Made by a program: the position numbers and the translations under genes. The notes below the pieces were generated by a model, which saw only the letters and a program-made list of their open reading frames with translations, had not been told where the DNA came from and ran no database searches. From contig JHUT02000001.1 of assembly GCA_000690595.2 (NCBI GenBank), forward strand, positions 1-64,000: a stretch of DNA of 64,000 bases. The letters run 5' to 3'. This document shows positions 8,907-36,768 of this stretch, one piece after another (position 1 is the stretch's first letter; every line of letters starts with the position of its first letter). The stretch comes from Natrinema mahii. GTDB lineage: Archaea; Halobacteriota; Halobacteria; Halobacteriales; Natrialbaceae.

Positions 8907-11849
8907 ATGAGTACTGAACAAGATCTTCAAGCACAACGTTCGCATCTCTATTGCCCGCACTTCCAGAACGTCGACGAAAAGACGCTCCGTCAGCTGTTCT
9001 CGAAGGTGGCAGCGGTTCGATCAGATAACCGTGATCTCTTCGATTTTACTCATCGGCCAATCAAAGTATTCCGATCGCCACAAGGTACACAAGCGGAAGA
9101 AGAGATCGTTAGCGAAGAAGCAGTCTACCGTGAGTTTTCCGATGAACGGGTTGGAAACTTCACTGTCGTAATTGAAGGTGAGGTCGGAACTGGGAAGTCA
9201 GAGCTTTGTGCTTATCTGGCACATCGGTTAAGAGACAACGACAGACCGATCCTTCACGTCGATAAGGACGACGACTTGATGACGTTACTTTCGGAGCGAA
9301 TCCCCGAATTCTACGAAGAACAATTCGGTGAGGAGCTCCCCGGAGCGTCGAATTTCAAGCAACTAAAGGACGACCTCGAGCAGAATGGTCGAGTCGTCGC
9401 AAACAATGCGACGTCTGGGGCCATCCTAAATCTGAGTGCTCATGGATATAATGTCCATGTTCAGGACAAGGAAGACGACATTCGAGACTTCGTCCAGGAA
9501 CAACTCTCTTTACTCGTCGAGAAGGGGGAATACGCTAAGGAGATCAAATTCGTTACCGAGCAGGCGTATCGACGAAACGACTTCCTCCAGATTTTCGAGG
9601 ATGACGTCGATAAGAGCGATGCAGTAGATGCGTTCAACAAGGAACTCTGGCGGGAAATTCGTGATCGATATCAGACCGCCTCGCTTGACGATGTTTTGGA
9701 GCGAGTCGGGCAGAAGTTCACCGATACGCGTCCGGTCATAATCTTCGAGGACTTCGCGATCACAGCGATGGAGGGCCAGCAGCTCCGAAATTACATGGAG
9801 CGTGACAAGCCAAGCGATAACTGGGATTTCGTTGTCGCTGGTACGCGCGACTCCACTCAGGTCCTTCACACGCGGACTGCTGAAGATCGGTTCGAATTCT
9901 ATCGCACGAACAGACAGAATTCGAACCAAGTTCTCTTCTTGGATGAAGATTCAGCGGTCGACTTCATCCGCCCGTATCTTGGTTATTTCAAATCCTTCGA
10001 CAATAGCGTTACCTACGACCGGAGTGGAGAAGGACTCGAGATAGAATTAGAACCAGCCCCAACCGATTCAATTTGTGATAGGTGTGGATTCTGTGACGAA
10101 TCTTTCCGTGACCTCTTCCCCTTCAACGAGCCGTTCCTTCAGCGAATGTACGCCGGACTTCGCGAAGACGAACAGTCGCCTCGAGAGTACGTAATGGCCG
10201 TATTTGATGTCCTTCGGGATTACTACGAAGGCTACATCAATGTGCCATCCGATGCTGATCGTCTATCCACTCTCACTAATCCTGTTGATCCAGATACAGC
10301 GATTTACGAACGTGCTGAATCTTTCGCAAAACTCGGACGATGGTATGGCGTCCCGACAAAGAACGGAATAGAAGTCGATAGCCGTTTTGTCGAAGTGTTC
10401 GGCTTTTCCGAGATTGTCGATGAAATCAATGAAGTGGAAAGAAATAGAGATTCAGTACTGATTCCAACAGATATCGGCAACAGCGGAACCGGAATACGTA
10501 CCGGAAGAAGTGGTACCAGGACTGAAGGAGGTTCCGGGGCCGGAAGTGGAACCGAAGGAGGGACTGAAACCGGAACTAGTTCCGAACCACCGTCGCGGTC
10601 GAAAGCCGAACGACTGATCGACGAGCATCAACCGAACGTTCAACCGTGGCAGAAAAATCCGACTGATTTCCCAGAGATCAGTCGCTATCTCCGAGTCGGG
10701 CTTCGGGACGCGATGGAGCGCCTGACGAACGGATTTGAATTATTTGAGGGTATGTCACTCCGGTATAATCTGAGTAGTCAGAAAGACCCGTTCGTCTTCG
10801 AAACTCTGCAACGAGCACCCGATGACGACCAAATAGTGATCGATCCCCAAGAGTTCCGGCTCTCTGACCTCAAAAAACTCCTCGAGTTCGGAATCTACCG
10901 TCAAGAAGACAAAGCGAAGGCAGATTACGATGATTTGCTTCGGGAGCTCGGCACCCAACTAACTGGCTACGCAAGGATCTGGCAGCAGAAGGTTATAAAC
11001 AAGAATCTTCGATCGGACAGTCGTTTCTTCAAAAAATCGGTTAGATATGAATTCGAAGACTTCGTCTTGGCTGGCTATGCGAACGTGGTCATGCTCGACT
11101 CTCCGTTCAAAGAGATGAGTGCCAAAACACTAGGTGAGCGCTTCTCTGATGGAAATTCATACGGATTAGACCCGACGCTCAGATCGGAGTTGAAGTCGGA
11201 ACTGTCCAAGGACCAGTACGAGGCCATTACGAGATTCCTTGATTACGGCGAGTGGTTCGAAGAGATGATTAGCGCATTCTTCGGAGCTAATGCCAATACG
11301 CTTGATCTCTCGAAAATCCGAACCCATCTCGATAAAAATTCACCGTACGAAGTACTCGAGGGACTCGGGCGGCAGTATATTCAGGACATTTCACCTCGTG
11401 TTCGGTTTGACACCGATAACAAAATCCGGGATATCGCCAACCAGACGTATGATCTACAGAACGCGCTTGAAGAGGTGCGCGACGAGTACCGAACGACGGT
11501 GGTTGAGACGTTTACCCAAGAACTGTCTGATGTCTCTGTTTCGGAAATTGAGGCAGGCGTCAAGACCCTTCGTACCTACGATAGCGCCGATTCAGAAATG
11601 ATCGAGTCACTTAGCAAGTTTATCGAACTCGACCAATCGGAAATCAATGATGCGGTTTCTGCTGCTGAGAGGGCAACTGATCTGTCTGAAGGCGACCCTA
11701 GCGAAAAGTTACAGGGAACGCTCATCAGTATGAAACTCGCGTCCTCTAATATCTACGGTCGATACTCAGATGTTACGATCGTCGGAGGAGGATCGGCATC
11801 AGAATTTGCTGAACACTTCCAATCCGTTGGGGAGCATTATGTCAACTGA
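8907..11849 (+). CDS. Large P-loop ATPase, DpdH-like
   Basis: A 980-residue cytosolic ATPase. A leader with the pattern FTHRPIKVFRS (about residues 47-57) precedes Walker A GEVGTGKSE (91-99); Walker B is VIIFED (277-282) and a sensor-like stretch VAGTRDST follows near 313. The arrangement of a His-Pro-x-x-x-x-Arg-Ser element before the P-loop recalls bacterial DpdH as I remember it. A CDRCGFCDESF zinc-type pair is near residue 392. A Gly/Ser/Thr-rich low-complexity linker (about 520-566) separates the ATPase half from a helical C-terminal half. One base separates it from the preceding stop, and its end overlaps the next gene by 11 bases. By family analogy it powers the restriction arm of a Dpd system; BREX-type large ATPases (BrxC/PglY) are the closest alternative. 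Confidence 0.6.
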   Translation: MSTEQDLQAQRSHLYCPHFQNVDEKTLRQLFSKVAAVRSDNRDLFDFTHRPIKVFRSPQGTQAEEEIVSEEAVYREFSDERVGNFTVVIEGEVGTGKSELCAYLAHRLRDNDRPILHVDKDDDLMTLLSERIPEFYEEQFGEELPGASNFKQLKDDLEQNGRVVANNATSGAILNLSAHGYNVHVQDKEDDIRDFVQEQLSLLVEKGEYAKEIKFVTEQAYRRNDFLQIFEDDVDKSDAVDAFNKELWREIRDRYQTASLDDVLERVGQKFTDTRPVIIFEDFAITAMEGQQLRNYMERDKPSDNWDFVVAGTRDSTQVLHTRTAEDRFEFYRTNRQNSNQVLFLDEDSAVDFIRPYLGYFKSFDNSVTYDRSGEGLEIELEPAPTDSICDRCGFCDESFRDLFPFNEPFLQRMYAGLREDEQSPREYVMAVFDVLRDYYEGYINVPSDADRLSTLTNPVDPDTAIYERAESFAKLGRWYGVPTKNGIEVDSRFVEVFGFSEIVDEINEVERNRDSVLIPTDIGNSGTGIRTGRSGTRTEGGSGAGSGTEGGTETGTSSEPPSRSKAERLIDEHQPNVQPWQKNPTDFPEISRYLRVGLRDAMERLTNGFELFEGMSLRYNLSSQKDPFVFETLQRAPDDDQIVIDPQEFRLSDLKKLLEFGIYRQEDKAKADYDDLLRELGTQLTGYARIWQQKVINKNLRSDSRFFKKSVRYEFEDFVLAGYANVVMLDSPFKEMSAKTLGERFSDGNSYGLDPTLRSELKSELSKDQYEAITRFLDYGEWFEEMISAFFGANANTLDLSKIRTHLDKNSPYEVLEGLGRQYIQDISPRVRFDTDNKIRDIANQTYDLQNALEEVRDEYRTTVVETFTQELSDVSVSEIEAGVKTLRTYDSADSEMIESLSKFIELDQSEINDAVSAAERATDLSEGDPSEKLQGTLISMKLASSNIYGRYSDVTIVGGGSASEFAEHFQSVGEHYVN

Positions 11850-12604: not shown

Positions 12605-15600
12605 ATGCAATTCATAGATCGACACACCAATTCTTCGCGATTAGACGACGACATACGTCAACTCATCGAAGGAATCCTCTATAACCGCCGGATCTTCGAC
12701 GCTGAACAGGATGACCCCCCATTTGTCACAGAAGCAGTAAAGTATCGACGTGAACGTCAGGACCGCCGACAGACGAGTGAATATACCGGATCAGATCCAT
12801 TCGTAAATGATATCCTCAAGCTGTTTGACTTCGAAGAGCCATTGGATTTCCAAGTCGAGAGCTGGCAGACGGTAGACGAATTGGATCACGACCGTCTCAA
12901 GTCAAACGAGAGCAAAGCAGCCATCTTTTCCGCTCCGACCGGGTTTGGGAAGACAGAAGCATTTTTAGGACCTCTCTATCAACTTCTCCGAGAAGAGCGT
13001 CAAGAGTCGACAGCGATCGTCTATCCGAGCCGGGCTTTGCTTCAAGACCAATTAGGCCGTATCCTCAAACACATTCACGAAATCGAGTCTCAATTCAATG
13101 AACAGCTTTCTGTCGGGATATACGTCGGCGGAATGCCGTATGAGATAAGCGACGTCGAAACCGATACAACCTTCTTCGAAACGAAAGGTGGCCATCCCAG
13201 ATTCAAGCTCGCTAACTGCTGGTGTGGTGAAGAAGGCTCACCAAATGCATTCGAGTTTCACGGGTCGTCGAGGGGATATACGCTGAAGTGTGAGAACAAC
13301 GATAACCACTCCTTCACTGACCGCGATATTCTCCTTTCGCGCCAGGATATGGTGTTCAACAATCAGCCGGATATTCTCCTTACGACGCTCGAATCTCTCG
13401 AAGGGTTTGCGTTGAAGCCTCACTATCCCCTGATCGACAATATCGAGACGATTGTCCTGGATGAAGTTCATTTGAATACTCAGATGCGAGGAGCACATGC
13501 AGCCAACATCATTCGAAATATAAATGAAATAACTGATCACCCGATTCTGTGGCTCGGTTCCAGTGCTACGATCGATAGTGCCGAACAGTTCGGCAAGCAA
13601 CTCTTCGGAGTCTCGAGTAACAACATTCGAACAGTAGAACCAAGGGAATCGGATTTCGACGACGATCACGAGGATTACGAGCACTACTATTTCATGCTGG
13701 CGTCGGAAGACGGTCCGGGTGCTTCCTCGATGTCAATCCAGCAGCACCTACTCTTCGGACATAGCCTTCTCGAGCAGTCATCCGGCGAACGAGGGAAAAT
13801 GCTTGCATTCATCGACAGCATCTCCCAAGTGAATCAGAAATACACACAGCTCGTTGACGCCGATCACAATCGAGAACTGTGGCGATACCATCTCGGCTCC
13901 GACGATGTCGAAGACTGGACTCAGGTCGCACGAGAGATGGATCACAACTTCCTCGATGAGCATCTCGAGTTTATGCCGGTGTACTCCGACCGAGGATTTG
14001 ACTCAGCCGAAGTCGCTAATAGTGACGTGTTGCTTTCCACGTCATTTCTGGAGGTCGGCATCGACGTTGGGGAAATCAAGACGATTACTCAGTATCGAAC
14101 ACCATGGGATCTCTCCTCGTTCCAGCAGCGAGCAGGGCGCGCTGCCCGGAAAGAAGGGATGGATGCACACATCGCTGTCATGCTTTCTGGACTTACCAGC
14201 GATGCAAATATGTTCTATCGGGCGGATCGATTCCTGGATTCCGATATTCGCACCCCACTGAAAACCGACAACGAAGTCGTTGAGTGGATTCATAGTCGAT
14301 TTCGAGATTATTACGAGACTGCGAGTGACATCAGTAGCCGAAACCTCCGACTTCAGAACCCACACGAGCTCTTCCTGGAGGAGTATCTCGATAACCAGCT
14401 CGACTACACCAAGTACCGGCAGCTAATACTTTCACCAGATGACTTCTTCGATGAAGAGTTCGATATTAACGTATCACCTGAGGCCCTACTTTCTGAGGAG
14501 CTCGTAAACGAAACGAGAGAGAGTCTTGAGGAATACCACGCTAACTTGCAAGAAGAGTTCGACGAGATTGAGTCGTTCTTCGGTTTAGACGATGGCAATG
14601 TCGTACGTGGTGAAGACGCGGTTGACACCTACGTGCATAAGGTCCAAGAGCGAGTGCTAAAATTGATTAACGCTCTGTCCGGTCAGGTAGCGGGCTACAA
14701 GAACGAACTCGATTTGCTCGGCGAATCTACACAGACCACTGAAATCAAAGAACTGGAATCCGAACTAGAAACGCTTCGTGAGAGTGCATCTCGGATTCCG
14801 GATGGTAAAACGCAGACTAAGGTTCAACACTTCGAGACACTATTGGGAGATCTCTTCGGCCTGAGTGGTGATCTAATCAAGCTTCAGAGCAGAGTAAATC
14901 GAACGAGTGAAGAGCCGATACCACAGGTTCGAACTGATCGTCTTAATGAGGTACAGGAGGCAGTCACGCGACTCAATAATCTGAGTGATGACGATCGAAT
15001 CAAGGAGTACTACCGAACGCAGAAACGCATCTACTACCTCAAAGAGGCACTCGACGAACTTGAGCAGTACGTGGGTTTTAGAACGCCATACCTCAGTTTG
15101 TATGCGATCAAGAATCTTCTCCGCGGTGCATACTATCTGGATCGATGTCTCAGAACTGACGACCGAAATCTGGGTGAAATCTGGTACGTTCCACCCAATT
15201 ACTACGGTGACTCGGGACGATTCTTCCGCGTCTTAGACCCGGGGAGTCAAGGAGGATCTGATGAGTCGATAGACAAGCTCGTCAGTACATATACGCCGTA
15301 CCGCTCGGAATATCAGTCGGAAACGAACGAGATGCGGGCCTTCCTTCCGCATACACAAGTGACTGAGGACGGCGTGGAGTTTGATTTCTCAGAATACGTG
15401 AGTGGTGAAGTCCGTGATGGTGTCTTCGTACCAGATTCGATCGAACTGTCCTCTGTGACGGATCTCAGTGGAGATGCTGCACTCAACATCGTCCGATACT
15501 GTCCAGAGTGCTACCAGATAATCTCGGATCTAGACAACTGTCTTCGACACGGCAAGAGCGCATTAGGGAAAATTCACTCCGATCCCCAAGTGAGTACGCA

Positions 15601-16681
15601 AATCACCGACCGTGATGAGGTCGAAACGACAGGTACGATCTCATTAGCGGACGTCACCTCGGAAGTTACCCTCGAAGGCGTCACACTCGATATCCGACCG
15701 GCTAGCGACTGGGGCGGAGAGATAAACTTCGATGGCAGCGATCCGTTCGAAGTCGAGATTGAGAGCCCGGACGAGAAGCTTGGCTTCCAACTCGATACGC
15801 GTGGTCTCGTTTTCGATATGGATTCGTATCTCCAGAAGATCAAACAAGACGAAGTCCGTAAAGTTGCCGAGCAGTACACCGACTTCGATGACGCCGACTA
15901 CGAGTACGTCGCTTACCACACGGCTGCTCACTTCTTCCTTCAGCTTGTTTCAGACATCAGTGCCGTCAACACGACAATGTTGTTCTATGGATTCAATCCG
16001 GAGACAGGCGAGGTTTACGTTTTTGAGCGTACGGAAGGAGGTCAAGGAATCGTCGATTTGGTCTATAACGAACTCTCTAGAGATCCGGGGACCGCCCTCG
16101 AGGCGATCAATCGAATCGCGTACAATCCCCAGGTCATCAACGAGCGGCTTTGGGCTCAAGAAGACTTCATCGATCAGTTACCGACTGATCCGGAAGAAGA
16201 GGCTGCTATTGAGTCGGTCGTCGATAAATTCTTGGAAAACCCGTTCGATTCCGTTTTAGAGCGAGTCGTTCAGGAGGTACTCTCTAGCGTCGACAAAGCT
16301 ACCCAGTTCGCGAAAGACGAGAATCTCGATATCGGAGAGACATATCGGGTCAAACACGTAATCGCTCAGGAGCAGCTCGACGGAAATGATGAATTCCCAG
16401 AAGAGGCAGTCACAGCGTTAAATCTTGGCCTCTCCGAGATTGATCGAACCAAGACTGTGTTTTACTCACCTGATATCGACGGTTGTGTCGAGAATCTGCA
16501 TCTCAGCGAGTGTATCGCAGCGACTGACCAGAGTGATTCGCTAAGCTACATTCTTCTCGAAGAACTCCGAGACCATCTTATCCGTAGTGTCCCTACGAGC
16601 GAAACAAGCAAAGAGATGTTCAAACGTAACTCTCCCCCAGCAGGTGAATTCGATGGTACAAGCATATTCCTTGACTTCTGA
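12605..16681 (+). CDS. Giant SF2 helicase, DpdJ-like
   Basis: A 1358-residue helicase, close to the length of bacterial DpdJ. Walker A is SAPTGFGKTEAF (about residue 112), motif II is the variant DEVH in IVLDEVHLN (about 283), motif III is GSSATIDSA (about 319), motif V is TSFLEVGIDVG (about 478) and motif VI is FQQRAGRAARKEG (about 504). A long coiled coil covers about 640-760 and a CPECYQII cysteine pair lies near 965. The C-terminal part has AHFFLQL (about 1107) and ERTEGGQGIVDLVY (about 1142), the DUF1998-like signature with its Gly-rich turn, and ends with paired cysteines near 1294-1302. It is a DNA translocase or helicase of the restriction module. The 3' end overlaps the PLD gene by 29 bases. 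Confidence 0.72.
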   Translation: MQFIDRHTNSSRLDDDIRQLIEGILYNRRIFDAEQDDPPFVTEAVKYRRERQDRRQTSEYTGSDPFVNDILKLFDFEEPLDFQVESWQTVDELDHDRLKSNESKAAIFSAPTGFGKTEAFLGPLYQLLREERQESTAIVYPSRALLQDQLGRILKHIHEIESQFNEQLSVGIYVGGMPYEISDVETDTTFFETKGGHPRFKLANCWCGEEGSPNAFEFHGSSRGYTLKCENNDNHSFTDRDILLSRQDMVFNNQPDILLTTLESLEGFALKPHYPLIDNIETIVLDEVHLNTQMRGAHAANIIRNINEITDHPILWLGSSATIDSAEQFGKQLFGVSSNNIRTVEPRESDFDDDHEDYEHYYFMLASEDGPGASSMSIQQHLLFGHSLLEQSSGERGKMLAFIDSISQVNQKYTQLVDADHNRELWRYHLGSDDVEDWTQVAREMDHNFLDEHLEFMPVYSDRGFDSAEVANSDVLLSTSFLEVGIDVGEIKTITQYRTPWDLSSFQQRAGRAARKEGMDAHIAVMLSGLTSDANMFYRADRFLDSDIRTPLKTDNEVVEWIHSRFRDYYETASDISSRNLRLQNPHELFLEEYLDNQLDYTKYRQLILSPDDFFDEEFDINVSPEALLSEELVNETRESLEEYHANLQEEFDEIESFFGLDDGNVVRGEDAVDTYVHKVQERVLKLINALSGQVAGYKNELDLLGESTQTTEIKELESELETLRESASRIPDGKTQTKVQHFETLLGDLFGLSGDLIKLQSRVNRTSEEPIPQVRTDRLNEVQEAVTRLNNLSDDDRIKEYYRTQKRIYYLKEALDELEQYVGFRTPYLSLYAIKNLLRGAYYLDRCLRTDDRNLGEIWYVPPNYYGDSGRFFRVLDPGSQGGSDESIDKLVSTYTPYRSEYQSETNEMRAFLPHTQVTEDGVEFDFSEYVSGEVRDGVFVPDSIELSSVTDLSGDAALNIVRYCPECYQIISDLDNCLRHGKSALGKIHSDPQVSTQITDRDEVETTGTISLADVTSEVTLEGVTLDIRPASDWGGEINFDGSDPFEVEIESPDEKLGFQLDTRGLVFDMDSYLQKIKQDEVRKVAEQYTDFDDADYEYVAYHTAAHFFLQLVSDISAVNTTMLFYGFNPETGEVYVFERTEGGQGIVDLVYNELSRDPGTALEAINRIAYNPQVINERLWAQEDFIDQLPTDPEEEAAIESVVDKFLENPFDSVLERVVQEVLSSVDKATQFAKDENLDIGETYRVKHVIAQEQLDGNDEFPEEAVTALNLGLSEIDRTKTVFYSPDIDGCVENLHLSECIAATDQSDSLSYILLEELRDHLIRSVPTSETSKEMFKRNSPPAGEFDGTSIFLDF

Positions 16682-17102
16682 AAGCCTCTCGTACTTTATC
16701 GGGTTCTCGCTACTACACAGTGACCGTGTCGTCATTGTCTCGCCGTGGTTGAGCGACGTCACGCTCCGACTTCCGGTCAATGACCGTTTCGAAGGTCGCG
16801 AAGTTCGGCTTCTACAGGCACTGGAAGAATTTTCAGATAAAGAGATCCATATTCTCGTCTGTGAGGGTGAAAATCATAACGAGTATATCAAGAATCGGCT
16901 TCCAGACCACGTTCACCTACAGGAAATTGACGATCTTCACGCAAAGGCCGTTGTTTGTGATGAATTCGTCTACATGGGGTCAGCAAATATCACTCACGGC
17001 GGTTTGACTTTGAATCGTGAATTATGTGAGGTGCTCGAGAACGAATACAACTCCGCTGGAGAATACGTGCGAAGAAAGCTTGACTTGGAGGTCAATCTAT
17101 AA
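16653..17102 (+). CDS. Phospholipase D-like nuclease, DpdK-like
   Basis: A 149-residue protein with one HKD motif: HAKAVVCDEFVYMGSANITHG (H-x-K near residue 95, then the usual G-S-x-N). One HKD per chain means it should work as a dimer, like other small PLD nucleases. Upstream segments VVIVSPWLSDV and EIHILVC are the beta-strands normal for the fold. Small PLD proteins close both bacterial dpd operons (DpdK) and DISARM operons (DrmC). The start at 16653 (ATG) lies inside the helicase gene; longer frames from 16587 have no better signal. It is the last gene of the operon and probably the DNA-cleaving effector (inference). Confidence 0.75.
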   Translation: MVQAYSLTSESLSYFIGFSLLHSDRVVIVSPWLSDVTLRLPVNDRFEGREVRLLQALEEFSDKEIHILVCEGENHNEYIKNRLPDHVHLQEIDDLHAKAVVCDEFVYMGSANITHGGLTLNRELCEVLENEYNSAGEYVRRKLDLEVNL

Positions 17103-17148: not shown

Positions 17149-17895
17149 TTACCACTCATCAACTGAAGTTTGATTTACTGGGGTAGAATTGATTTGGTAC
17201 TCCGTGAGCTGTTTCCACCCCAAACCTTGTTTCCGTAACAAGCGTTTCACCTTATTACCGACCTCAGGTGCAACGAGAATACCTCGTACTGACGCGTCGT
17301 CGGACTTTCGAAAATAGGAAACGTATCGGTGGAGTTGATCGACGTGAGAGTACTGAGCTACAGGCTGCTTGATTTCGAGGATTACGTTGTTACCATCTGT
17401 ATCTGCCCCGTAGAAGTCAATCCGACCGTGGGGCGTCCAACGTTCGTGTTCGATAATACGGAGTCCTTCTTCGATCTCTTCGGGATTCGACTGAATGAAC
17501 TCGTGCATCTGGTTTTCGGTCTGGTTCTCTTGTAGAATCGCCTCATCCGTGGCACTGCTTCGTACTGCAAGTGAGGCATCAGTGATATCGACTCGAATTT
17601 GCTCACTCTGGCCTTTTGCCGCATATATCCGAAGAAAATCGTCGATGAGGACTGTTTCGAGCGAACTCCCTATACCTTGTCGGGCTACCGCACGAGCACC
17701 AGTTGGCCGATGAACTGTTACTGCTCCGTCTTTTTTACAGATGATTAGACGCTCTCCTTCGCCGATCTTCCCCTCTCTGGCACCAGTATATTCAACTCTG
17801 CACGTCGCAAAAATCGTCACCAGATCTCCTTCAGCGTGAGCTCTAGAAACAAAATCAGTGAGTTCCCCCAGGCTAGGTGACTGAATGGATCTCAT
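17149..17895 (-). CDS. nucS: NucS/EndoMS endonuclease
   Basis: A 248-residue protein with the NucS layout: an N-terminal beta-rich DNA-binding half (EGDLVTIFATCRVEYTGARE) and a C-terminal PD-(D/E)XK nuclease. The catalytic residues are Asp160 in RIDFYGAD, Glu174 and Lys176 in LEIKQP, followed by QLHRYV. With the ATG at 17895 these numbers match those I recall for Pyrococcus NucS, which supports this start over the ATG at 17934. NucS cuts both strands at mismatches and at branched or single-stranded DNA. Here it overlaps a cluster for DNA base modification, follows the Nmad-like gene by 7 bases and converges with the PLD gene. Its role may be repair of, or attack on, altered DNA (inference). 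Confidence 0.82.
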   Translation of the reverse strand: MRSIQSPSLGELTDFVSRAHAEGDLVTIFATCRVEYTGAREGKIGEGERLIICKKDGAVTVHRPTGARAVARQGIGSSLETVLIDDFLRIYAAKGQSEQIRVDITDASLAVRSSATDEAILQENQTENQMHEFIQSNPEEIEEGLRIIEHERWTPHGRIDFYGADTDGNNVILEIKQPVAQYSHVDQLHRYVSYFRKSDDASVRGILVAPEVGNKVKRLLRKQGLGWKQLTEYQINSTPVNQTSVDEW

Positions 17896-17902
17896 CACTC
17901 GA

Positions 17903-19186
17903 TCAGCAACCGCAACTCGATGGAGGTGGAACATCCCCTGATTCGTCTTCTTCTTTCAACCGTTCTACTTCTTCAATGCACTTTTCAAAGACGTTAGGAT
18001 GTTGGTCAAGCTGATTGACAAGCTGACGAGTAGTTGCCTCGTCGAACTTCTTCATTCGGACATACCTCGGCGATTCGGCGACTTCCGACAGTGGAATAGC
18101 ATTCTCAAATCGGACAAGTCTTGTCGGACCCTGTACAGCTAAATGGTCGCCCATGTCAAGCTTCCTCTCTTTCTCGATGTAACCCACGATGTAACGTTCG
18201 TCGTAGAACTCCACTAAATCGCTGTTTTCACATTTAGTGAACAAAAATAGATATCGACGACTGTTATTCTTTAGAAATCCACGAATGTTCGGTTGATAAC
18301 ACTCGTTGCAGTAGTTTTCTGCCTGTTCTTCGATGTGGGGTTCTGTCTTCCCTCTACCAATGATGTCCCGCACGGGGAATTCAGACTCGGGGGCATGGAA
18401 AAAGAACTGCAACTGACCTTTATGACCAAGTTGGGAACGATCAAATTCACTACTGGAGACAACAGTTGGCTCGTCTGAGACTTCGGAATGGAACTCTCGT
18501 TGTGCTTGTAAAATAGTCCGTGTTCCGTCTTTATCGAACCGAAGAGGACGCCGGTACCAAGGGCCTTCTCCAGAGTCTTCGGAGTGTTCCGTGACGTATT
18601 CGTTTGCTTCGACTCCCGATCCCTTGCTAAACGGAAGCGGAGTCTCGTATAGTCGCGACTCGTCTGAATTTCCGAGGACAAGATACTCTGCATCGAATTC
18701 TTCACGCCTCACGTGCGCATTAGTCGCAAACTGTTTTTTCACTTCTTCTGGCAGTGAGTGATATTCCTCCTTCGAAACAGGATCGTATTCCAATGTGAAG
18801 TGGCCAATGATATACGCACCCCAATCGTTGTTTATCCAATCGTAGTTTGGTTCGTGATCACTGGCGTAGTCCAGCGTTGCATAAAAGAACAGAATATCAC
18901 CTTCTTCGAGCTTCGCAATTTCAGTAGTCTTCGGCGGGTGCCGATCACCGTACGTGTAGTGATCAGTGAAACCAATCTCGGGGAACTCTGGGTCGAAGTG
19001 AATTACGGTATCGCGTATTTCTTCGGGACGAACGTCTGCGAGTCCAAGGTCACTATAAGTTGGCTCACTAACTGTTTTATCAGCTTCTGCGATGGGGACG
19101 TATTCGAAAGAACCATCCGAATATATTGGCCCTCGGCCTCCTGGTGTGTTACTATTCGCCCCAACATTGAGAGCTACTGACTTCAT
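17903..19186 (-). CDS. Nmad-like nucleotide-modification-associated protein
   Basis: A 427-residue protein. Its start, LNVGANSNTPGGRGPIY then FEYVPIAE, with IIGHFTLE further on, resembles the Nmad3 family (nucleotide modification associated domain) predicted by comparative genomics to act in DNA base modification; the match is from memory and moderate. Other conserved-looking parts are FTDHYTYGDRHPPKT, GDILFFYATLDY and two cysteines in ENYCNECYQPNIRGFLK (about residue 285). The C-terminus carries a small SCGC tail. It has its own promoter (TATA-like box at 19211-19218, 28 bases before the ATG, so leaderless) and forms a two-gene unit with nucS. The unit faces the modification operon across a 235-base divergent region. 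Confidence 0.55.
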   Translation of the reverse strand: MKSVALNVGANSNTPGGRGPIYSDGSFEYVPIAEADKTVSEPTYSDLGLADVRPEEIRDTVIHFDPEFPEIGFTDHYTYGDRHPPKTTEIAKLEEGDILFFYATLDYASDHEPNYDWINNDWGAYIIGHFTLEYDPVSKEEYHSLPEEVKKQFATNAHVRREEFDAEYLVLGNSDESRLYETPLPFSKGSGVEANEYVTEHSEDSGEGPWYRRPLRFDKDGTRTILQAQREFHSEVSDEPTVVSSSEFDRSQLGHKGQLQFFFHAPESEFPVRDIIGRGKTEPHIEEQAENYCNECYQPNIRGFLKNNSRRYLFLFTKCENSDLVEFYDERYIVGYIEKERKLDMGDHLAVQGPTRLVRFENAIPLSEVAESPRYVRMKKFDEATTRQLVNQLDQHPNVFEKCIEEVERLKEEDESGDVPPPSSCGC

Positions 19187-19421: not shown

Positions 19422-19883
19422 ATGTCGACGTTACTCGTTCAATCTTGTTCAAAGTCTAAAAATGAGGTAGATGAACCCGTCTCAGCGCTCGAATTGTACT
19501 CTGGCTACTTCTTCAAAATAATCAAGAAGTCGATACGAGAAGGCGCTGAAAATTCAGATATTGATATGTGTATTCTTTCGGCTAAACATGGAATAGTCAA
19601 CCCAAACGAACAGATTTCCCCATATGACCAGCGAATGGATGCCAAACGTGCGCAGGAAATTGGGCCAAAAGTAAGAAAACAACTTCGACGTCGGATCAGT
19701 GAGAATAGTTATAATAATATTGTTATAAATGCGGGAAAAGACTATCAACGGGCTCTCGAGGGCTTCGATGATGATTTGGACGTTACTACGTTTGTGATTC
19801 AGGGAGAGGGAATCGGGATGAAAGGACGTGCACTGAAACAGTTCCTCCGAGGCGATCGGTCAGGCGTTGCGAGGGTGCACTAA
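19422..19883 (+). CDS. DUF6884/YaaA-like Cys-Ser-motif protein
   Basis: A 153-residue protein. The opening LLVQSCSKSKNEV puts a Cys-Ser-x-x-Lys motif on the first loop, followed by LYSGYFF, ILSAKHGIVNPNEQISPYD and a C-terminal NAGKDYQRALEGF. This is the DUF6884/YaaA-like pattern found beside TGT paralogues in phages and dpd-type clusters. The same layout (LLFIPCSQKK, then GMYGPV, then SKTYRQVIENAF) occurs in the C-terminal ArcS-type domain of the TGT fusion at 23271, so the two are probably distant homologues. It may bind DNA or the modified base for the transglycosylase (inference). The stop overlaps the next ATG (TAATG), indicating coupling to the first TGT gene. Confidence 0.65.
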   Translation: MSTLLVQSCSKSKNEVDEPVSALELYSGYFFKIIKKSIREGAENSDIDMCILSAKHGIVNPNEQISPYDQRMDAKRAQEIGPKVRKQLRRRISENSYNNIVINAGKDYQRALEGFDDDLDVTTFVIQGEGIGMKGRALKQFLRGDRSGVARVH

Positions 19884-21133
19884 TGTCGCAGACTGACTCA
19901 CTCTCAGCTGTTGACTTTGAGGTCTCAGCGACGGCAGGAGACGCTCGTACTGGAACACTGTCTATCGGTGAAACTGAGATCCGAACACCAAATCTTTTCC
20001 CAGTACTGAATTTCTATGGAGGGGGTACAAAAAACAGTGTATACGGTGGAGGAATCCACCGGACGGTAAAGGAATTCATGATTAGCGCCGATCGAGTCGG
20101 TGCCGGTGATTATTCTGAGTTCTTCGATGGTGTTCTCACATCTGTTTCTTCCCTTACGGATTACAACGTGACTCGGGAACGCTATGAGGATTATATTGCA
20201 GCCCCGATCAAAGAACGAGACGTCTTCTCACCGTTCTCTGGTACATTGTTTATCGATTCTGGAGGGTTCAAATTCCTCAATAATGATGGAATCGATGGGA
20301 GCAATTTTCAGGTCAACATCGATCAGAAAACAGCATACGAAATTCAGCGGAGGATGGGTGCGGATATTATCGTTAATCTTGACCGGCCAATCGCACCAGA
20401 CGATAGCCATGAGCAACGAATAGAGAAAGCTCGAAAGACTGGCGAAAATATTGAGGAATTCCTCCGCCTGTCATCCGATTTCGATGGAGCTCGTTTCCTT
20501 ACGCTCCATGGATATAATTACTCCATGATGGATGCATTTCTCACAGAGATCACGAAGTATTGTAGCGCTGAAACACTTTGTTCGTCGTTCGACGGCATAG
20601 CATTGGGTAGCCTTGTTCCGAAGAAGGACGACAGAAGCGCGCTCATCGATGCGGTCATTGATTGTCGAAGGGTGCTTTCTGATTGGGGGTTCGACGATCT
20701 CCCCCTCCACGTTCTGGGAATCTCGAGTCGGGCAATCCCACTGCTTACTGCTCTTGGAGTCGACTCTTTCGATTCATCTACCTACCTCCAAACAGCGATA
20801 AACGGCGGGTATTTTGTATCCTTGATGGAGACTGTAAATGTGTCTGAGGCGGATTTCGAGCAATGTAACTGTCCCGTGTGTTCGTCGGATCTCTTGCGAG
20901 GATGGATGGAAGATAAAGAAAACGCACCGTATCAGAAAGACAGGCTAGGTGCCGTTGCGATGCATAATCTGATCGTTCAAAAACGAGAGATGGCTAAGAT
21001 TCGGGACTGCATCAGTCGTAGCGAAACAGAACCGCTGATTCAATATATCGAATCGACGGTCGCACAGGATAAACCGACTAGAGAGTTTGCACATCGAGTT
21101 GTCAACCATTCGCTTGGAGGGTATTCCTTATGA
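19883..21133 (+). CDS. TGT-like DNA transglycosylase 1 (DpdA-like)
   Basis: A 416-residue member of the tRNA-guanine transglycosylase superfamily. It keeps the substrate-pocket loop FIDSGGFKF (about residue 125), NLDRPIAP (about 164), GIALGSLVP (about 238) and the nucleophile segment GVDSFDSSTYLQTA (about 291). The TGT zinc site is present as CNCPVC (about 328-333) plus a His in AMHN (about 360). There is no PUA domain, so tRNA binding is unlikely; position beside dpd-like genes points to DNA as the substrate, with guanine exchanged for preQ0. It could be the catalytic or the partner half of a pair with the second TGT at 23271, as in eukaryotic QTRT1/QTRT2. Its end overlaps the GHKL gene (ATGA). 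Confidence 0.78.
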   Translation: MSQTDSLSAVDFEVSATAGDARTGTLSIGETEIRTPNLFPVLNFYGGGTKNSVYGGGIHRTVKEFMISADRVGAGDYSEFFDGVLTSVSSLTDYNVTRERYEDYIAAPIKERDVFSPFSGTLFIDSGGFKFLNNDGIDGSNFQVNIDQKTAYEIQRRMGADIIVNLDRPIAPDDSHEQRIEKARKTGENIEEFLRLSSDFDGARFLTLHGYNYSMMDAFLTEITKYCSAETLCSSFDGIALGSLVPKKDDRSALIDAVIDCRRVLSDWGFDDLPLHVLGISSRAIPLLTALGVDSFDSSTYLQTAINGGYFVSLMETVNVSEADFEQCNCPVCSSDLLRGWMEDKENAPYQKDRLGAVAMHNLIVQKREMAKIRDCISRSETEPLIQYIESTVAQDKPTREFAHRVVNHSLGGYSL

Positions 21134-22683
21134 AAAAACATCCAAAAGTTAACGAAGTTAACGAGTTCCTCGAAATTGCTAGCGACTTCGAAGACCCACT
21201 CGAGGTAATCCGCGAGTCGCTATCGAACGCCTACGATGCAAATGCATCGGACGTTGAAATCGAAATCAAAAGCCGTGAAATGGGATCTGATATCATCATC
21301 GATGACGATGGTGATGGAATGGACGAGCGCGATCTCGAATCGTTTTTCGACCTCGGGAATTCACGAAAAACAGATTCGATCGGATACAAAGGCCACGGCA
21401 CGAAAATATTCTACAAGAGTGATCGTATCGTCGTAAGTACGGCAACTGACGATACTCATCTTCGCGCAAAAATGGAACAGCCTTGGGAAAAGCTCAACCG
21501 ACGCGAACTTCCCGAATACGAGGTGTCGGAGAGACCAGATAGTAAAGACCACACTGGAACCAGAATTCGTATTCGCAACTTCCGGTCCGGTGAGGGGTTC
21601 GATCCCGAGAAACTCACTTACAATAAGATCGAACACTATTTGAAGTGGAAAACCATTGCAGGCTCGACAGCTTATATGTTCGACGAGGAAGACCGGGAGA
21701 TGGACATTACCGTCCGGTTGGGCGATGAAATTGATGACTCACAGCCCAAACTCGAAACCACAAATCGATTCGAGTTTCCCGATCCGCAGGAAAAACCTGA
21801 CGAAGAGTCAGAATTCCCGGCGGAACGTATGTGCAAGCACTACGATCCTACTGAGATTGAGATAGAACACGACGGAGGGACATCTACTCTACAAATCGTC
21901 GGTATGGTCGGTGGCAAAGCAGCCCGAAACGAACTTCCTACTTACGGAAAGCATTCTGCGCAATTCGGAGTTTGGCTTGCGAAAGACCATATCAAAGTTG
22001 AACGATTAAACGAGGCTATTTCACACGACAACGAGTTTCTCCACTTCTTTTTCATAGTTAATTGCCAGGATATCGAACTTTCCGCGAATCGTGAAACAAT
22101 CCGGAACAAATCAAGCTCGGTGTTTCAGAAGCTCAAGGAAGAGGTCGAATACCACATGTCGAAGGTTGCACAGGACCCTTGGTTCAAAAAGTATCTCGAG
22201 CTTCGACGAGAAGCCGAGATTAAACGGCGAGCGAGGAAGCGTCGGTCGTCCCTGAAACAACGAAGAGAACGAGTGGAGTCCGAGGAAAAGAGCGAGCCGA
22301 CGAATCGGACGGAGGTTTTGCTTGAACTCGAGCGCTCGAACGGAACGGCGACGATGACGGTCGAAGACTTCGAACCGGACGCCGACGTTCACGCAATTGT
22401 CAGACAGAGTGGGAAGCTTAGGAACGCCGCAGTTCACTATTCACTAACTGATCATTTCGAAAATGAATTGACGTTTGAGGAGGTTGACCTCGTGATCTGT
22501 TGGGAATACGGTGACCCGGTAAAACTACGGGAGTACGAACGAAAGGGCTACCTCGGCGAGACGGTCGAAGTCGACCTCGACGAGAACGGATTATACTACG
22601 GAGACGACAATTCATACGTTGAAATTTTACCATTGAGTGAACAAATCGAATCTACTACAAAACAGGCCGTAGCTGATGATTGA
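21130..22683 (+). CDS. GHKL (Hsp90/MORC-like) ATPase
   Basis: A 517-residue protein with a clear GHKL ATP-binding fold: motif N is EVIRESLSNAYDAN (Glu29, Asn33), the G1 box is DDDGDGMD (58-65), a lid segment follows (FFDLGNSRKT) and the G2 box is GYKGHGTK (85-92). A middle domain runs to about residue 350, and a basic stretch RRARKRRSSLKQRRERV (about 364-380) could bind nucleic acid. The C-terminal 120 residues form a beta-rich domain without catalytic motifs. Related proteins dimerise through ATP to clamp DNA or clients. It is translationally coupled to TGT 1 (ATGA overlap) and to the nuclease-like gene after it. It is not part of the bacterial dpd set I know. Confidence 0.75.
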   Translation: MKKHPKVNEVNEFLEIASDFEDPLEVIRESLSNAYDANASDVEIEIKSREMGSDIIIDDDGDGMDERDLESFFDLGNSRKTDSIGYKGHGTKIFYKSDRIVVSTATDDTHLRAKMEQPWEKLNRRELPEYEVSERPDSKDHTGTRIRIRNFRSGEGFDPEKLTYNKIEHYLKWKTIAGSTAYMFDEEDREMDITVRLGDEIDDSQPKLETTNRFEFPDPQEKPDEESEFPAERMCKHYDPTEIEIEHDGGTSTLQIVGMVGGKAARNELPTYGKHSAQFGVWLAKDHIKVERLNEAISHDNEFLHFFFIVNCQDIELSANRETIRNKSSSVFQKLKEEVEYHMSKVAQDPWFKKYLELRREAEIKRRARKRRSSLKQRRERVESEEKSEPTNRTEVLLELERSNGTATMTVEDFEPDADVHAIVRQSGKLRNAAVHYSLTDHFENELTFEEVDLVICWEYGDPVKLREYERKGYLGETVEVDLDENGLYYGDDNSYVEILPLSEQIESTTKQAVADD

Positions 22684-23153
22684 TCACGATGGGTGAATTC
22701 GCTTCTGAAGTTCAAGTCTATATTCGAGATCGGCTCAAAGAGTCTCGTCCCTCTCTTTCGTGGGAAACGGAATACGATCTCGCAGGGACTCCTATCGATA
22801 TTGTCGGTACAAACGGAGAGACGATGGTAGCACTTGAATTAGAGTGGCGACGGGCGGACCCTGCTGATAACTCTGCGAAAATCTTCCGCCACCTCTATAT
22901 GGAGCAGATAGATGCGGACGAGGTACTCATCGCACAAATCTTCACCGGATACTATGATTTGACGAGTGGAGGTATCTCATCGAAGCGGAAAAACGCTGAA
23001 TTTGTTGGTAAGGTCGCTGCCGACTCGATTGATCATCTTTCGTATTATCCGATTCATCTCCCGATAGAGCCACCCAAGCGGGGAGAAGAGTGGCCGGAGT
23101 CGTGGGCTGAGGCTGCCGACGATACTGTCGAACAAATCATCGGTTGTCTTTAA
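22680..23153 (+). CDS. PD-(D/E)XK-like protein
   Basis: A 157-residue protein (ATG 22680 overlapping TGA; ATG 22689 is an alternative start). The core GTPIDIVG then MVALELEWRR places Asp40, Glu53 and Glu55 as in the restriction-endonuclease fold, with ExE instead of the usual ExK, and helices DNSAKIFRHLYMEQID follow. It may be an active nuclease with an altered third residue or an inactive relative. It pairs with the GHKL ATPase by overlap, a combination reminiscent of ATPase-nuclease defence pairs. No zinc site or membrane segment is present. Confidence 0.55.
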   Translation: MITMGEFASEVQVYIRDRLKESRPSLSWETEYDLAGTPIDIVGTNGETMVALELEWRRADPADNSAKIFRHLYMEQIDADEVLIAQIFTGYYDLTSGGISSKRKNAEFVGKVAADSIDHLSYYPIHLPIEPPKRGEEWPESWAEAADDTVEQIIGCL

Positions 23154-23270: not shown

Positions 23271-25301
23271 ATGGCGTCCTTCCGGGTAAAGACGGTCGGT
23301 GACGACGGATATGGGCGGATCGGTGAGTTGGACGTTACACACGGACCTATAGAGACGCCAGCGATGTTCCCTGTCGTCAACATGATTGGGGGAACGACTG
23401 TGGAGTCCGGTGGCGTCTGGAGTCGGATGCGGAACAAGCTCATCGACAAGGAGCACCTTCAGGGAATAATGTTCCAAGCGATGAGCTTTACTGATTATGG
23501 TGTATCTCCAGATAATTTGAACGATTTCTGGAGACAAAAGACGTTCCACGAGCGGTTCAACGAGCACGATGACCTCCCTAACCTCGATGCCCCGGTCTTT
23601 ATCGATTCGGGCGGGTTCAAGTTGATGAATTCCAATACATTTGGTGAGGCTCCAGAAAAAGGTGGTGTGCCGAATGAGTGGGGGCTTTACACAGATCCAA
23701 AAAGCATCCTCGGTCTACAGCTCGATTTCGGTGCCGATATCGTTGCAACCCTCGACTATCCAATTCCCCCGAATCTGAAAGAGGACGAGAAAACCGAGCG
23801 GATGAATCGGAGTATCGATAGTGCAGTCGAGTGTCTTCGTATCCTCGATGAACCAGCACTTCTCGAAGAAAGTTTCTCCATCAACAGTCGTGCGGCTGAT
23901 CGCCTTCGCGAGCGAAAGGCCGCCGGAGAAGAACCGAGCGTCTACATTGCACTCCATGGGCACGATTACGAGACGATCAACTGGTACGTAGGTAGTTTCC
24001 TCAACCGAATTTCCGAACACGATCTCGATAGCTCGTTTCAGGGATTTGCAGTGGGGTCGCTCGTTCCGCTCCGAGACAGTATGGATATTTTAGTCGATAT
24101 CGTCCAAGGCGCCAAAGACGCTATCCCTGAGGAGCGTTCGGACGAAATCGGCTTACACGTTTTCGGCGTAGGTGGGAAACAGGTCGGGTTGCTTTCTCTC
24201 CTCGGTGTGGATACGTTCGACTGTTCGACGCACATGCAGACTGCACGGTACAAGAAGTATCTTCACCCAGACACCTGGGCAAATCATGAACTGGACGAAT
24301 TAGAAGACCATCTCGAACCAGACGGCAGTTTCCCTTGCGACTTGCCCAACTGTCTTCTATGTGATGAGAACGAAGTTAGCTACGAAACGCTAATCGAAGA
24401 ACTCAACAGGGATTGGACGTACGAGGAACGAGAACGTGTGAAAGACAATGGTGGAAATATTAAAAGTGACTACTATGCTCTATTGGCGCGTCACAACTTC
24501 GAAGTCTACAATGAGGAGCTCAGACGAGTGCGAGAGGCGATTCGCGAAGGCCAACTTTTAGACTACGTTATCGGATTCGCGCGGAGTCACGACGATATTA
24601 AACGAGGGCTGAAAGAAGCGCAGATCAGGGACAAACGACTCAGAGCCGAACTCGAGTCTCGTGGCGCGTATGACCTGCTCCCCGGCTCTACACTGACGAG
24701 CGATCAGACGAAACTCTCGGAATGGGACGGTGGTGTCGATGAATCCGTCGACACCCAGCAAATCTCTCTGAAGCATAGTCCGAACGATTTCGATATTTTC
24801 ACGCGGTCCTACGAACCTCCATCGGCCAAAGAAATCCTCTTGTTTATTCCCTGTAGTCAAAAGAAGCCATATTCACAATCGCGAACCCATTCGATTCTTT
24901 TCGACAAACTCGGGCCCCGAGTCGACAACATCCACAAGGTGACCATCTCGGGTATGTACGGACCTGTGCCCGAATCTTTCGAACAAGAACAACCGGTTCT
25001 GGAGTACGATTACGTCCTTGCAAAGGAGGATATCGACCAAATTGAGTTAGTCACGAACCGCGTTCAACGATATCTCGTACAATACGGAGACCAGTTCGAC
25101 CACATCGTCGGGTACGTGACGAGTAAAACCTACCGTCAAGTCATCGAAAATGCGTTCGATGAGTTCGGACGCGGCAAGGTTTTTCCCCAAGAACCAAAAG
25201 CGTTACAGCTTACAGAGTTTTTCAGAAACGAAAATATCCAAGAGCTCCTTGACTATTTGGACCAGCATACAGCTGATGATCTGAGTGACCAACATTCGTA
25301 A
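23271..25301 (+). CDS. TGT-like DNA transglycosylase 2 fused to an ArcS-type domain
   Basis: A 676-residue fusion. Residues 1 to about 430 are a TGT fold with FIDSGGFKLM (about 112), TLDYPIPP (about 159), FAVGSLVP (about 259), the nucleophile segment GVDTFDCSTHMQTA (about 311) and a zinc site CDLPNCLLC (about 356-364) plus His near 406. Residues about 520-660 contain PCSQKKPYSQSRTH (about 527-540), which fits the PCSxxKPYxxSxSH signature of archaeosine synthase ArcS, followed by VTISGMYGPVP. ArcS modifies preQ0 in archaeal tRNA (lysine addition and then archaeosine with a radical SAM partner). No PUA domain is seen. Inference: the protein swaps guanine for preQ0 in DNA and converts it further. 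A 117-base gap separates it from the previous gene. Confidence 0.78.
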   Translation: MASFRVKTVGDDGYGRIGELDVTHGPIETPAMFPVVNMIGGTTVESGGVWSRMRNKLIDKEHLQGIMFQAMSFTDYGVSPDNLNDFWRQKTFHERFNEHDDLPNLDAPVFIDSGGFKLMNSNTFGEAPEKGGVPNEWGLYTDPKSILGLQLDFGADIVATLDYPIPPNLKEDEKTERMNRSIDSAVECLRILDEPALLEESFSINSRAADRLRERKAAGEEPSVYIALHGHDYETINWYVGSFLNRISEHDLDSSFQGFAVGSLVPLRDSMDILVDIVQGAKDAIPEERSDEIGLHVFGVGGKQVGLLSLLGVDTFDCSTHMQTARYKKYLHPDTWANHELDELEDHLEPDGSFPCDLPNCLLCDENEVSYETLIEELNRDWTYEERERVKDNGGNIKSDYYALLARHNFEVYNEELRRVREAIREGQLLDYVIGFARSHDDIKRGLKEAQIRDKRLRAELESRGAYDLLPGSTLTSDQTKLSEWDGGVDESVDTQQISLKHSPNDFDIFTRSYEPPSAKEILLFIPCSQKKPYSQSRTHSILFDKLGPRVDNIHKVTISGMYGPVPESFEQEQPVLEYDYVLAKEDIDQIELVTNRVQRYLVQYGDQFDHIVGYVTSKTYRQVIENAFDEFGRGKVFPQEPKALQLTEFFRNENIQELLDYLDQHTADDLSDQHS

Positions 25302-27389: not shown

Positions 27390-27511
27390 ACCGGCGGAAA
27401 CGCGCCGGCCATGGTGGGGGCGAGCGCGTGACCCGCCGAGATGAGCAGCTACGGTGCGCAGCAGCGCAGGGCGACGTCGAGTCCTCGACGGTCGCGCGCT
27501 CAGAGGACAAA

Positions 27512-28705
27512 ATGTCAAGTAACAACTCCGACATTTCGGAATCGAACCAGTCGGACAGTTCCGAAGAGAAGCCCCTCCCCGATACGCCACACGTTCCCGA
27601 GCCTACGCAGGAGTACCTGGGCGAACGCCAAGCATTGCTCTACGAGAGGCAACGCGAGCGCCTCATCGAGTGGCTGGCAACCGAGGACGCTTGCGAGGGC
27701 GATGGGACGCTCTCTGAGCAGAGCCAGTCGAATTACGCTAGCCGGTTGGACCAAATCCATCGCTGGGTCTGGAAGTACGTCTCCGACGGATTCGTCTCCA
27801 CTCTCAAGCGCGACCACGCCGACGCGTTCGTCGAGGCATTGCGCGAGGATGAATTTACGAAACGCACCGGCGAACCGTACGCTGCCGACAGCAAGAGAAA
27901 GTTCGCGAACGCACTCAAGAAGCTGTTTCAGTGGGACTCCGGCGAGGACGAGGAGCCGTGGGAGCCGGAAACCACGTTCTCGCAGAACGAATACAACCAG
28001 TTCGACCACCTTACTCGGGAGGAACGAGTCCAGCTCCGCGAGGCTGCCACGACCTTCGGGAGTATGCCGAAGTACAACGACCTCTCGCCCGAAGAGCGTA
28101 GTCGTAAAAAGGCGCTTCTCGCCCAGCGCCTTGGCAAGCCAAAGGACGAGATTACCATGGGCGACTGGAAGCACCAGAACCGGACTTGGAAATTTGCCTC
28201 TCTCGTGATGACGGCGCTCGACGCCGGCCTTCGTCCGTGCGAGGTTGAGCGGGCACGGACCAGCTGGCACCAGCCGGATGCCGACGTTCTCCGTATCCCT
28301 CGGGAAGACGTCGCGAAGGAACGGAACCTAAGTGATCGGAAATCCTGGGTAGTTGCTCTTCGCGATGAAACCTCGGACGCTCTCGAGCTCTGGCTGGACG
28401 AGCGTGATGCTTGTCCCAAGTATGACGACACTGACAAGCTCTGGCTCAACCGCAAAGGGAACCCGTACAACTCGAAGACGCTCAATCACCTCTTCCGTAA
28501 GCTCCTCGACGAGGCAGGCATCGACGACACCAACCGGAAGCTCACCTGGTACTCTATCCGGCACTCGCTCGGGACCTACATGACCGAAGAGGGGAATCTC
28601 GAGCAGGCGCGGGAGCAGATGCGCCACAAGTCGGCGGAAACAACCCGCCGCTACGTCCACGCCCCGCCCGAGACTCGCCGAGAGACATTGGACGACATGG
28701 ACTGA
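27512..28705 (+). CDS. Tyrosine recombinase/integrase 1
   Basis: A 397-residue integrase from the ATG at 27512; the longer frame from 27428 adds a poorly conserved leader. The N-terminal SAM-like DNA-binding half (SNYASRLDQIHRWVWKYV) precedes the catalytic half with ALDAGLRPCEVERA (first Arg), WYSIRHSLGTYM (second Arg, with Tyr replacing the usual His of HxxR), QMRHKSAETTRRYVHAP (His and nucleophilic Tyr). It is a clear paralogue of integrase 2 (35478-36584), sharing LTREER and YNDLSP. It catalyses site-specific recombination of the element. No tRNA lies beside it in the window, so it probably belongs to an earlier or nested insertion. Confidence 0.88.
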   Translation: MSSNNSDISESNQSDSSEEKPLPDTPHVPEPTQEYLGERQALLYERQRERLIEWLATEDACEGDGTLSEQSQSNYASRLDQIHRWVWKYVSDGFVSTLKRDHADAFVEALREDEFTKRTGEPYAADSKRKFANALKKLFQWDSGEDEEPWEPETTFSQNEYNQFDHLTREERVQLREAATTFGSMPKYNDLSPEERSRKKALLAQRLGKPKDEITMGDWKHQNRTWKFASLVMTALDAGLRPCEVERARTSWHQPDADVLRIPREDVAKERNLSDRKSWVVALRDETSDALELWLDERDACPKYDDTDKLWLNRKGNPYNSKTLNHLFRKLLDEAGIDDTNRKLTWYSIRHSLGTYMTEEGNLEQAREQMRHKSAETTRRYVHAPPETRRETLDDMD

Positions 28706-36758: not shown

Positions 36759-36768
36759 GAGGAAGGAG

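What the first reader, a model, noticed from the sequence alone, without database searches (positions are those of the whole stretch)
21130..23153. GHKL ATPase coupled to a PD-(D/E)XK-like protein inside the modification operon
The two genes overlap each other, and the GHKL gene overlaps TGT 1. Neither belongs to the canonical dpd set. The nuclease-like protein has ExE in place of ExK. The pair may be an ATP-dependent DNA clamp and effector, or may open DNA for base exchange.
Basis: partly seen in the sequence, partly recalled or inferred. Interest (0 to 1): 0.7.

Follow-up and report, generated by a model that had tools for sequence, protein, structure and literature searches.

The report
GHKL ATPase locked to DNA-modifying TGT
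In salt-loving archaea, a clamp-like ATPase always travels with an enzyme predicted to swap bases in DNA, in the place where the bacterial version of this defence system keeps a different ATPase, whereas the small nuclease-like protein next to it is only an occasional extra.

Summary
Both genes are real, but they are not one unit. The GHKL gene (21130-22683) is an obligate partner of TGT1. In 392 haloarchaeal genomes, full-length GHKL and TGT1 occur in the same 39 and nowhere else. In the 38 other loci TGT1 lies directly upstream on the same strand (gap -11 to +4 nt), preceded by a DpdC-like DUF6884 gene. None of the 39 genomes has DpdB, the ATPase that bacterial Dpd systems use to insert preQ0; a bacterial control scored over cut-off. 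The restriction genes around the core vary, and 13 of 39 genomes lack both DpdJ and DpdH homologues. Best reading: DUF6884-TGT1-GHKL is the writer of a Dpd-type system and the GHKL protein, a MORC/MutL/Hsp90-like ATPase, replaces DpdB. The 157-aa protein has a PD-(D/E)XK fold and an invariant D40...E53-x-E55, but follows GHKL directly in only 2 of 39 loci and lies within 25 kb in 9. Most copies sit elsewhere, usually beside leuS. It is an accessory, probably a nuclease. Function is inferred; nothing here measures modification.

The parts
21130..22683 (+). GHKL + S5 ATPase (517 aa), obligate partner of TGT1; proposed replacement of DpdB
   Evidence: Pfam; alignment; 39 of 39 co-occurrence; adjacency; model and folds
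22680..23153 (+). 157-aa PD-(D/E)XK-fold protein with ExE; optional accessory; start probably ATG 22689
19883..21133 (+). TGT1, DpdA/ArcTGT-like transglycosylase with D125, D297 and C333 invariant in 39 of 39
   Evidence: PF01702 E 6e-26; NCBIfam DpdA E 1e-6, below cut-off, and TgtA
19422..19883 (+). DUF6884 protein, DpdC-like; C9, S10, K13 invariant in 39 of 39
   Evidence: PF21818 E 5e-19; PADLOC DpdC E 2e-5
23271..25301 (+). TGT2: TGT domain plus DUF5591/ArcS-like domain (matches ArcS at 512-631)
   Evidence: in 34 of 39 genomes
12605..16681 (+). DpdJ-like helicase, variable restriction part
   Evidence: PADLOC DpdJ E 1e-50; 25 of 39 genomes
16587..17102 (+). PLD-domain protein (DpdK-like by position)
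   Evidence: PF13091 E 8e-8
8907..11849 (+). DpdH-like P-loop ATPase, variable restriction part
   Evidence: PADLOC DpdH E 8e-10; 23 of 39 genomes

Best explanation
DUF6884-TGT1-GHKL is the fixed writer of a haloarchaeal Dpd-type DNA modification system. TGT1 (with TGT2 where present) exchanges guanine in DNA for preQ0, DUF6884 and/or the ArcS-like part of TGT2 modify the inserted base, and the GHKL protein is the ATPase of the exchange step, a non-orthologous replacement of bacterial DpdB. Proposed mechanism: a GHKL dimer closes on DNA when ATP binds, holds TGT1 on the duplex and distorts it so that the guanine can be reached, then opens on hydrolysis. The PD-(D/E)XK protein is an optional accessory nuclease recruited to some of these islands from a haloarchaeal family that mostly sits at a chromosomal site; it more likely serves restriction. 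Shown: gene identities, co-occurrence, adjacency, conserved catalytic residues, folds, absence of DpdB. Inferred: DNA as substrate, ATP coupling, clamp action, nuclease activity.
For: Same 39 of 392 genomes have full-length GHKL and TGT1; TGT1 directly upstream in 38 of 38 further loci, gap -11 to +4 nt, DUF6884 before it in 38 of 38. DpdB 0 of 39 with LW23 as positive control. GHKL stays where DpdJ and DpdH are both absent (13 of 39) and where TGT2 is absent (5 of 39). Catalytic residues invariant in GHKL, TGT1 and DUF6884 (39 of 39). TGT1-GHKL identity matrices correlate at 0.943 against 0.80-0.85 for pairs with DUF6884 or TGT2. QueC/QueD/QueE/FolE genes in many loci. MORC/MutL/Hsp90-type fold.
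Against: No modification, ATPase or binding data. [quoted passage not shown] TGT1 is below the NCBIfam DpdA cut-off (27.6 against 200 bits). The co-occurrence is in one archaeal order and shared inheritance of neighbouring genes inflates correlation. Bacterial relatives of GHKL (27-32% identity) have no TGT neighbour.
Confidence: 0.6

Rival explanations
1. The GHKL protein is a restriction component that senses the modification state and controls nucleases, as proposed for MORC/paraMORC proteins in restriction-modification operons and for the GHKL domain of VcSduA.
For: GHKL ATPases are frequent in restriction operons (PMC2292703, abstract and sections read); VcSduA joins GHKL to a PD-(D/E)XK nuclease and both activities are needed for defence (PMC12137116, passages); nuclease-like gene directly follows GHKL in the window and G377.
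Against: GHKL tracks TGT1 and not any cutter: 13 of 39 genomes lack both DpdJ and DpdH, the nuclease-like gene is linked in 9 of 39, and GmrSD, GIY-YIG, HerA/phosphodiesterase and DrmA-like genes replace one another.
Confidence: 0.25
2. The GHKL protein is an Hsp90-like chaperone or assembly factor for TGT1 rather than a DNA-acting ATPase.
For: Hsp90/HtpG chains head the Foldseek list, and strict coupling to one partner would suit a dedicated chaperone.
Against: VIA-align ranks MORC3 above Hsp90 (Z 18.4 against 16.4; a small difference), and the sequence-profile hits are MutL and MORC2, not Hsp90.
Confidence: 0.08
3. GHKL and the PD-(D/E)XK protein form a dedicated two-subunit clamp-nuclease.
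For: Direct adjacency in the window and in G377; 9 of 15 genomes with both have them within 25 kb, about 3e-14 under random placement.
Against: 30 of 39 clusters lack the nuclease within 25 kb; 92 of 392 genomes have it, mostly without GHKL; 27 of 41 examined copies lie at a leuS-type chromosomal site.
Confidence: 0.05

Closest known systems
Bacterial Dpd system (dpdABC writer, dpdD-K restriction)
   Same: TGT-family enzyme with a DUF6884/DpdC-like partner and an ATPase in one operon, DpdH/DpdJ-like proteins, preQ0 genes nearby
   Different: No DpdB in 39 of 39 genomes; a GHKL ATPase sits beside the TGT instead; often a second TGT with an ArcS-like domain; TGT1 below the DpdA cut-off
BREX-related capture (BRC) systems with TGT (PMC12839542)
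   Same: TGT without DpdB; authors suggest another ATPase (STAND) may take its place; L096 has HerA and a phosphodiesterase-domain protein near the core
   Different: No GHKL ATPase is named there (0 occurrences in the main text); here GHKL is constant and the BREX-like genes are not
MORC / paraMORC ATPases of restriction operons (PMC2292703)
   Same: N-terminal GHKL plus S5 module in defence operons with helicases and nucleases
   Different: MORC signature motif absent in 39 of 39; partner is a TGT, not a methylase
VcSduA (GHKL-Shedu, paraMORC3; PMC12137116)
   Same: GHKL ATPase together with a PD-(D/E)XK nuclease in anti-phage defence
   Different: One fused protein there; here separate genes and the nuclease is optional

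Membership tests
GHKL ATPase superfamily | N, G1 and G2 motifs (E29, N33, DxGxG, GxKGHGT) | tested here: met
   Pfam HATPase_c/_c_3; invariant in 39 of 39
GHKL ATPase superfamily | S5-type second domain after the ATPase domain (MutL, MORC, Hsp90 group) | tested here: met
   VIA-align covers model residues 6-366 with MORC3, MORC2, MutL, Hsp90
MORC family | GhXhhpXXRhl motif in the S5 domain (as given in PMC2292703) | tested here: not met
   0 of 39 by pattern search
Bacterial Dpd system | DpdA (NCBIfam NF041059 over cut-off) | tested here: not met
   TGT1 matches at E 1.3e-6 but 27.6 bits against a cut-off of 200; it works like a DpdA at most
Bacterial Dpd system | DpdB | tested here: not met
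   0 of 39 genomes; positive in LW23
Bacterial Dpd system | DpdC / DUF6884 protein | tested here: met
   PF21818 in the window; homologue in 38 of 38 further loci
Bacterial Dpd system | 7-deazaguanine in DNA | not testable with these tools
   Needs nucleoside mass spectrometry
PD-(D/E)XK nuclease superfamily (157-aa protein) | alpha-beta-beta-beta-alpha-beta core | tested here: met
   Model pLDDT 89.1; Can2, EndoMS, Bax1, McrC, BstEII among best folds
PD-(D/E)XK nuclease superfamily (157-aa protein) | catalytic Lys of the (D/E)XK motif | tested here: not met
   E55 in its place in 49 of 49; K67 and K102 invariant and could stand in; BamHI is a recalled example of an active ExE enzyme
GHKL-Shedu (paraMORC3) | DUF4263 nuclease fused behind the GHKL module | tested here: not met
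   No DUF4263 hit in GHKL or in the 157-aa protein at E up to 1; separate genes

The most novel reading that the evidence does not exclude
A MORC/MutL-type GHKL clamp is an obligate subunit of a DNA base-exchange enzyme: ATP-driven closing on DNA lets a TGT reach guanine in duplex DNA. This three-gene writer, without DpdB, is a portable module that haloarchaea combine with Dpd-, BREX-related, DISARM-like and GmrSD-type restriction modules.
Probability: 0.45. Interest if true: 0.8.

Novelty: new variant of a known kind. Interest (0 to 1): 0.6.

Why it matters
How a TGT, a base-exchange enzyme known from tRNA, gets at guanine in duplex DNA is open; in bacteria an ATPase, DpdB, is used, and what it does is not settled in what I read. 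Archaea with an unrelated ATPase in its place would show which property counts (ATP-driven DNA handling) and give a second system to test it. GHKL clamps are known from mismatch repair, topology and silencing, so a link to base modification would widen their range. TGT next to GHKL is also a simple marker for finding archaea that may modify their DNA.

Tried and rejected
GHKL outside haloarchaea: a single-sequence scan of genome contigs gave no relative. With the alignment, 4 bacterial genomes and 1 virus contig had relatives of 27-32% identity without TGT neighbours; a Caballeronia plasmid had another. In the phylum search (294 genomes) three non-haloarchaeal genomes matched: a full-length relative on a 6.6-kb contig without TGT (L177), a copy cut at a contig end with an ArcS-like gene 2.2 kb away (L178), and a weak one on a 3.6-kb contig (L179). 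These contigs are too short to judge context.

PD-(D/E)XK protein in mobile elements: none in viral contigs or plasmids; it was not searched in phages. GHKL: none in phages. Sequence search of solved structures for the nuclease-like protein gave only NucS at E 0.14, not counted.

A cluster-specific clade of the nuclease-like protein: 8 of 9 linked copies fall in one group together with two unlinked copies, SH-aLRT 86, so its origin is left open.

Raw ORF clustering around the nuclease gene was swamped by antisense ORFs; I replaced it by an acidic-protein filter. That filter can drop or misplace genes, and in some loci of that table an overlapping ORF stands in for the nuclease gene. Neighbour counts inherit this.

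paraMORC2 (conserved ExxxH late in S5): the pattern occurs in 26 of 39, not conserved, so no assignment. Folds not listed are not excluded.

Literature: searches found no paper in the held library that names a GHKL ATPase next to a DNA TGT; (7-deazaguanine, DNA modification, GHKL) gave one paper, where the two concern different systems. Most subscription papers are not held, and the main Dpd papers (PMC10164549, PMC6207457) were not available, so no wider claim about print is made.

Full report
OBSERVATION. The two ORFs exist as described: 21130-22683 (517 aa) and 22680-23153 (157 aa), both on +. TGT1 ends at 21133 and GHKL starts at 21130 (ATGA). The overlap of GHKL with the second gene holds only for a TTG start at 22680; the start shared by nearly all relatives corresponds to ATG 22689, which leaves 5 nt between the genes. 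The surroundings are a Dpd-like island: DpdH-like ATPase, DpdJ-like helicase, PLD protein, DUF6884, TGT1, GHKL, the PD-(D/E)XK-like protein, TGT2 with an ArcS-like domain, then a 639-aa protein with a C-terminal helix-turn-helix and an integrase.

GHKL IS TIED TO TGT1. In 392 genomes of the order, GHKL gives 139 genomes at E 1e-3, but nearly all beyond the first 39 are weak domain hits of about 20-30 bits; full-length homologues (490 bits or more) are in 39 genomes. TGT1 at E 1e-60 is also in 39 genomes, and comparing the two lists gives the same 39. I fetched 20 kb around GHKL in the 38 other genomes. In all 38 TGT1 is immediately upstream on the same strand, gap -11 to +4 nt, with a DUF6884 gene before it. 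One more genome, G088, has broken GHKL fragments and no TGT1. Identity matrices of TGT1 and GHKL over 39 genomes correlate at 0.943, more than TGT1 with DUF6884 (0.82) or, over 28, with TGT2 (0.83); close linkage contributes to this.

IT STANDS WHERE DpdB WOULD BE. In bacteria DpdB is the ATPase that drives preQ0 insertion, with DpdA and DpdC (PMC12839542 and PMC11888242, passages). The DpdB model finds nothing in any of the 39 GHKL genomes (10, 29). The same search finds DpdB over cut-off beside DpdA in Verrucomicrobia bacterium LW23, which also has a distant GHKL relative on another contig. [quoted passage not shown]

THE RESTRICTION SIDE VARIES. DpdJ is found in 25 of 39 genomes and DpdH in 23 of 39 at E 1e-20; 13 have neither (my comparison of the lists). 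TGT2 is in 34 of 39. In the 20-kb stretches of the 38 loci, GmrSD-type proteins occur in 9 and GIY-YIG proteins in 11 (one member of each checked). L096 has a HerA protein and a phosphodiesterase-domain protein, L098 a DrmA-like helicase and an AAA_5 protein with a DpnI_C domain. QueC 13, QueE 13, QueD 12 and FolE 4 of 38 (one member of each checked, where QueE shows as Radical_SAM) support local preQ0 supply. So GHKL goes with the writer and not with any one cutter.

FOLD OF GHKL. The model from 20 sequences (mean pLDDT 78.8; residues 76-88 and the C-terminus poor) gives GHKL plus S5. VIA-align: MORC3 Z 18.4 (3.9 A, 299 residues), MORC2 17.0, MutL 16.6, Hsp90 16.4. Profile search of PDB sequences gives MutL and MORC2 (E 5e-7 to 2e-6). 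The MORC signature motif is absent (0 of 39), so it is MORC-like, not shown to be a MORC. MORC2 acts as a DNA clamp (PMC12216690, abstract); clamp action here is inference.

THE PD-(D/E)XK PROTEIN IS AN ACCESSORY. It is found in 92 of 392 genomes. 15 of the 39 GHKL genomes have it, and in 9 of these it lies within 25 kb of GHKL (G000, G338, G350, G184, G377, G191, G144, G297, G212); it directly follows GHKL in 2 (window, G377). Under random placement (50 kb of 4 Mb) 9 of 15 has probability about 3e-14; defence genes cluster, so this overstates the case, but linkage is real. I examined 41 copies outside the GHKL stretches: the 40 best-scoring such copies of about 84, plus the window genome's own second copy (L100). 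27 of the 41 have at least two of leuS, bcp, hsp20, pheA within 5 kb; the other 14 include L105, the copy of G191 about 19 kb from GHKL (families checked). A TGT match was found only in L105 among the 40. All 49 aligned copies keep W28, E31, D40, E53, E55, W56, R57, R58, N64, K67, S100 and K102. The model (pLDDT 89.1, 6 sequences) has the PD-(D/E)XK core; nearest solved folds are Bax1, McrC, Can2 and BstEII (Z 8.8-9.2) and EndoMS/NucS. ExE in place of ExK is also found in BamHI (recalled), so an active nuclease is likely but not shown.

CONCLUSION. The strongest result is the obligate TGT1-GHKL unit in genomes without DpdB.

Noticed in passing
7044-8905 and 11770-12519: Three proteins without a Pfam match above cut-off travel with the DpdH-like ATPase as a block in several haloarchaeal loci (L066, L083, L145, L148).
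   Followed up: partly
17149-19186, - strand: A NucS-like nuclease and an Nmad3 (nucleotide modification associated) protein sit head to tail on the opposite strand inside the island.
   Followed up: no
23271-25301: TGT2 has intact TGT residues and an ArcS-like domain (NCBIfam ArcS E 4e-32) whose PCSxKKPYSxSRTH-type stretch is nearly invariant in 28 aligned copies: one protein might both insert and convert the base.
   Followed up: partly
1-36000: The island is AT-rich (46-59% GC) against 63-70% downstream; it holds an integrase at 27428-28705, and a tRNA-Glu lies at 36768-36843 near the change.
   Followed up: no
L100, 9675-10145 (- strand): The window's own genome has a second copy of the PD-(D/E)XK protein (51% identity) at the leuS-type chromosomal site; what this widespread haloarchaeal protein does there is unknown.
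   Followed up: partly
L163 and G635:C56: Verrucomicrobia bacterium LW23 has DpdA and DpdB together on one contig and a GHKL relative near a C5 methylase and Vsr on another.
   Followed up: partly
L181, 19509-24208: The Haladaptatus plasmid carries three annotated tRNA-guanine transglycosylase genes within 14 kb.
   Followed up: no
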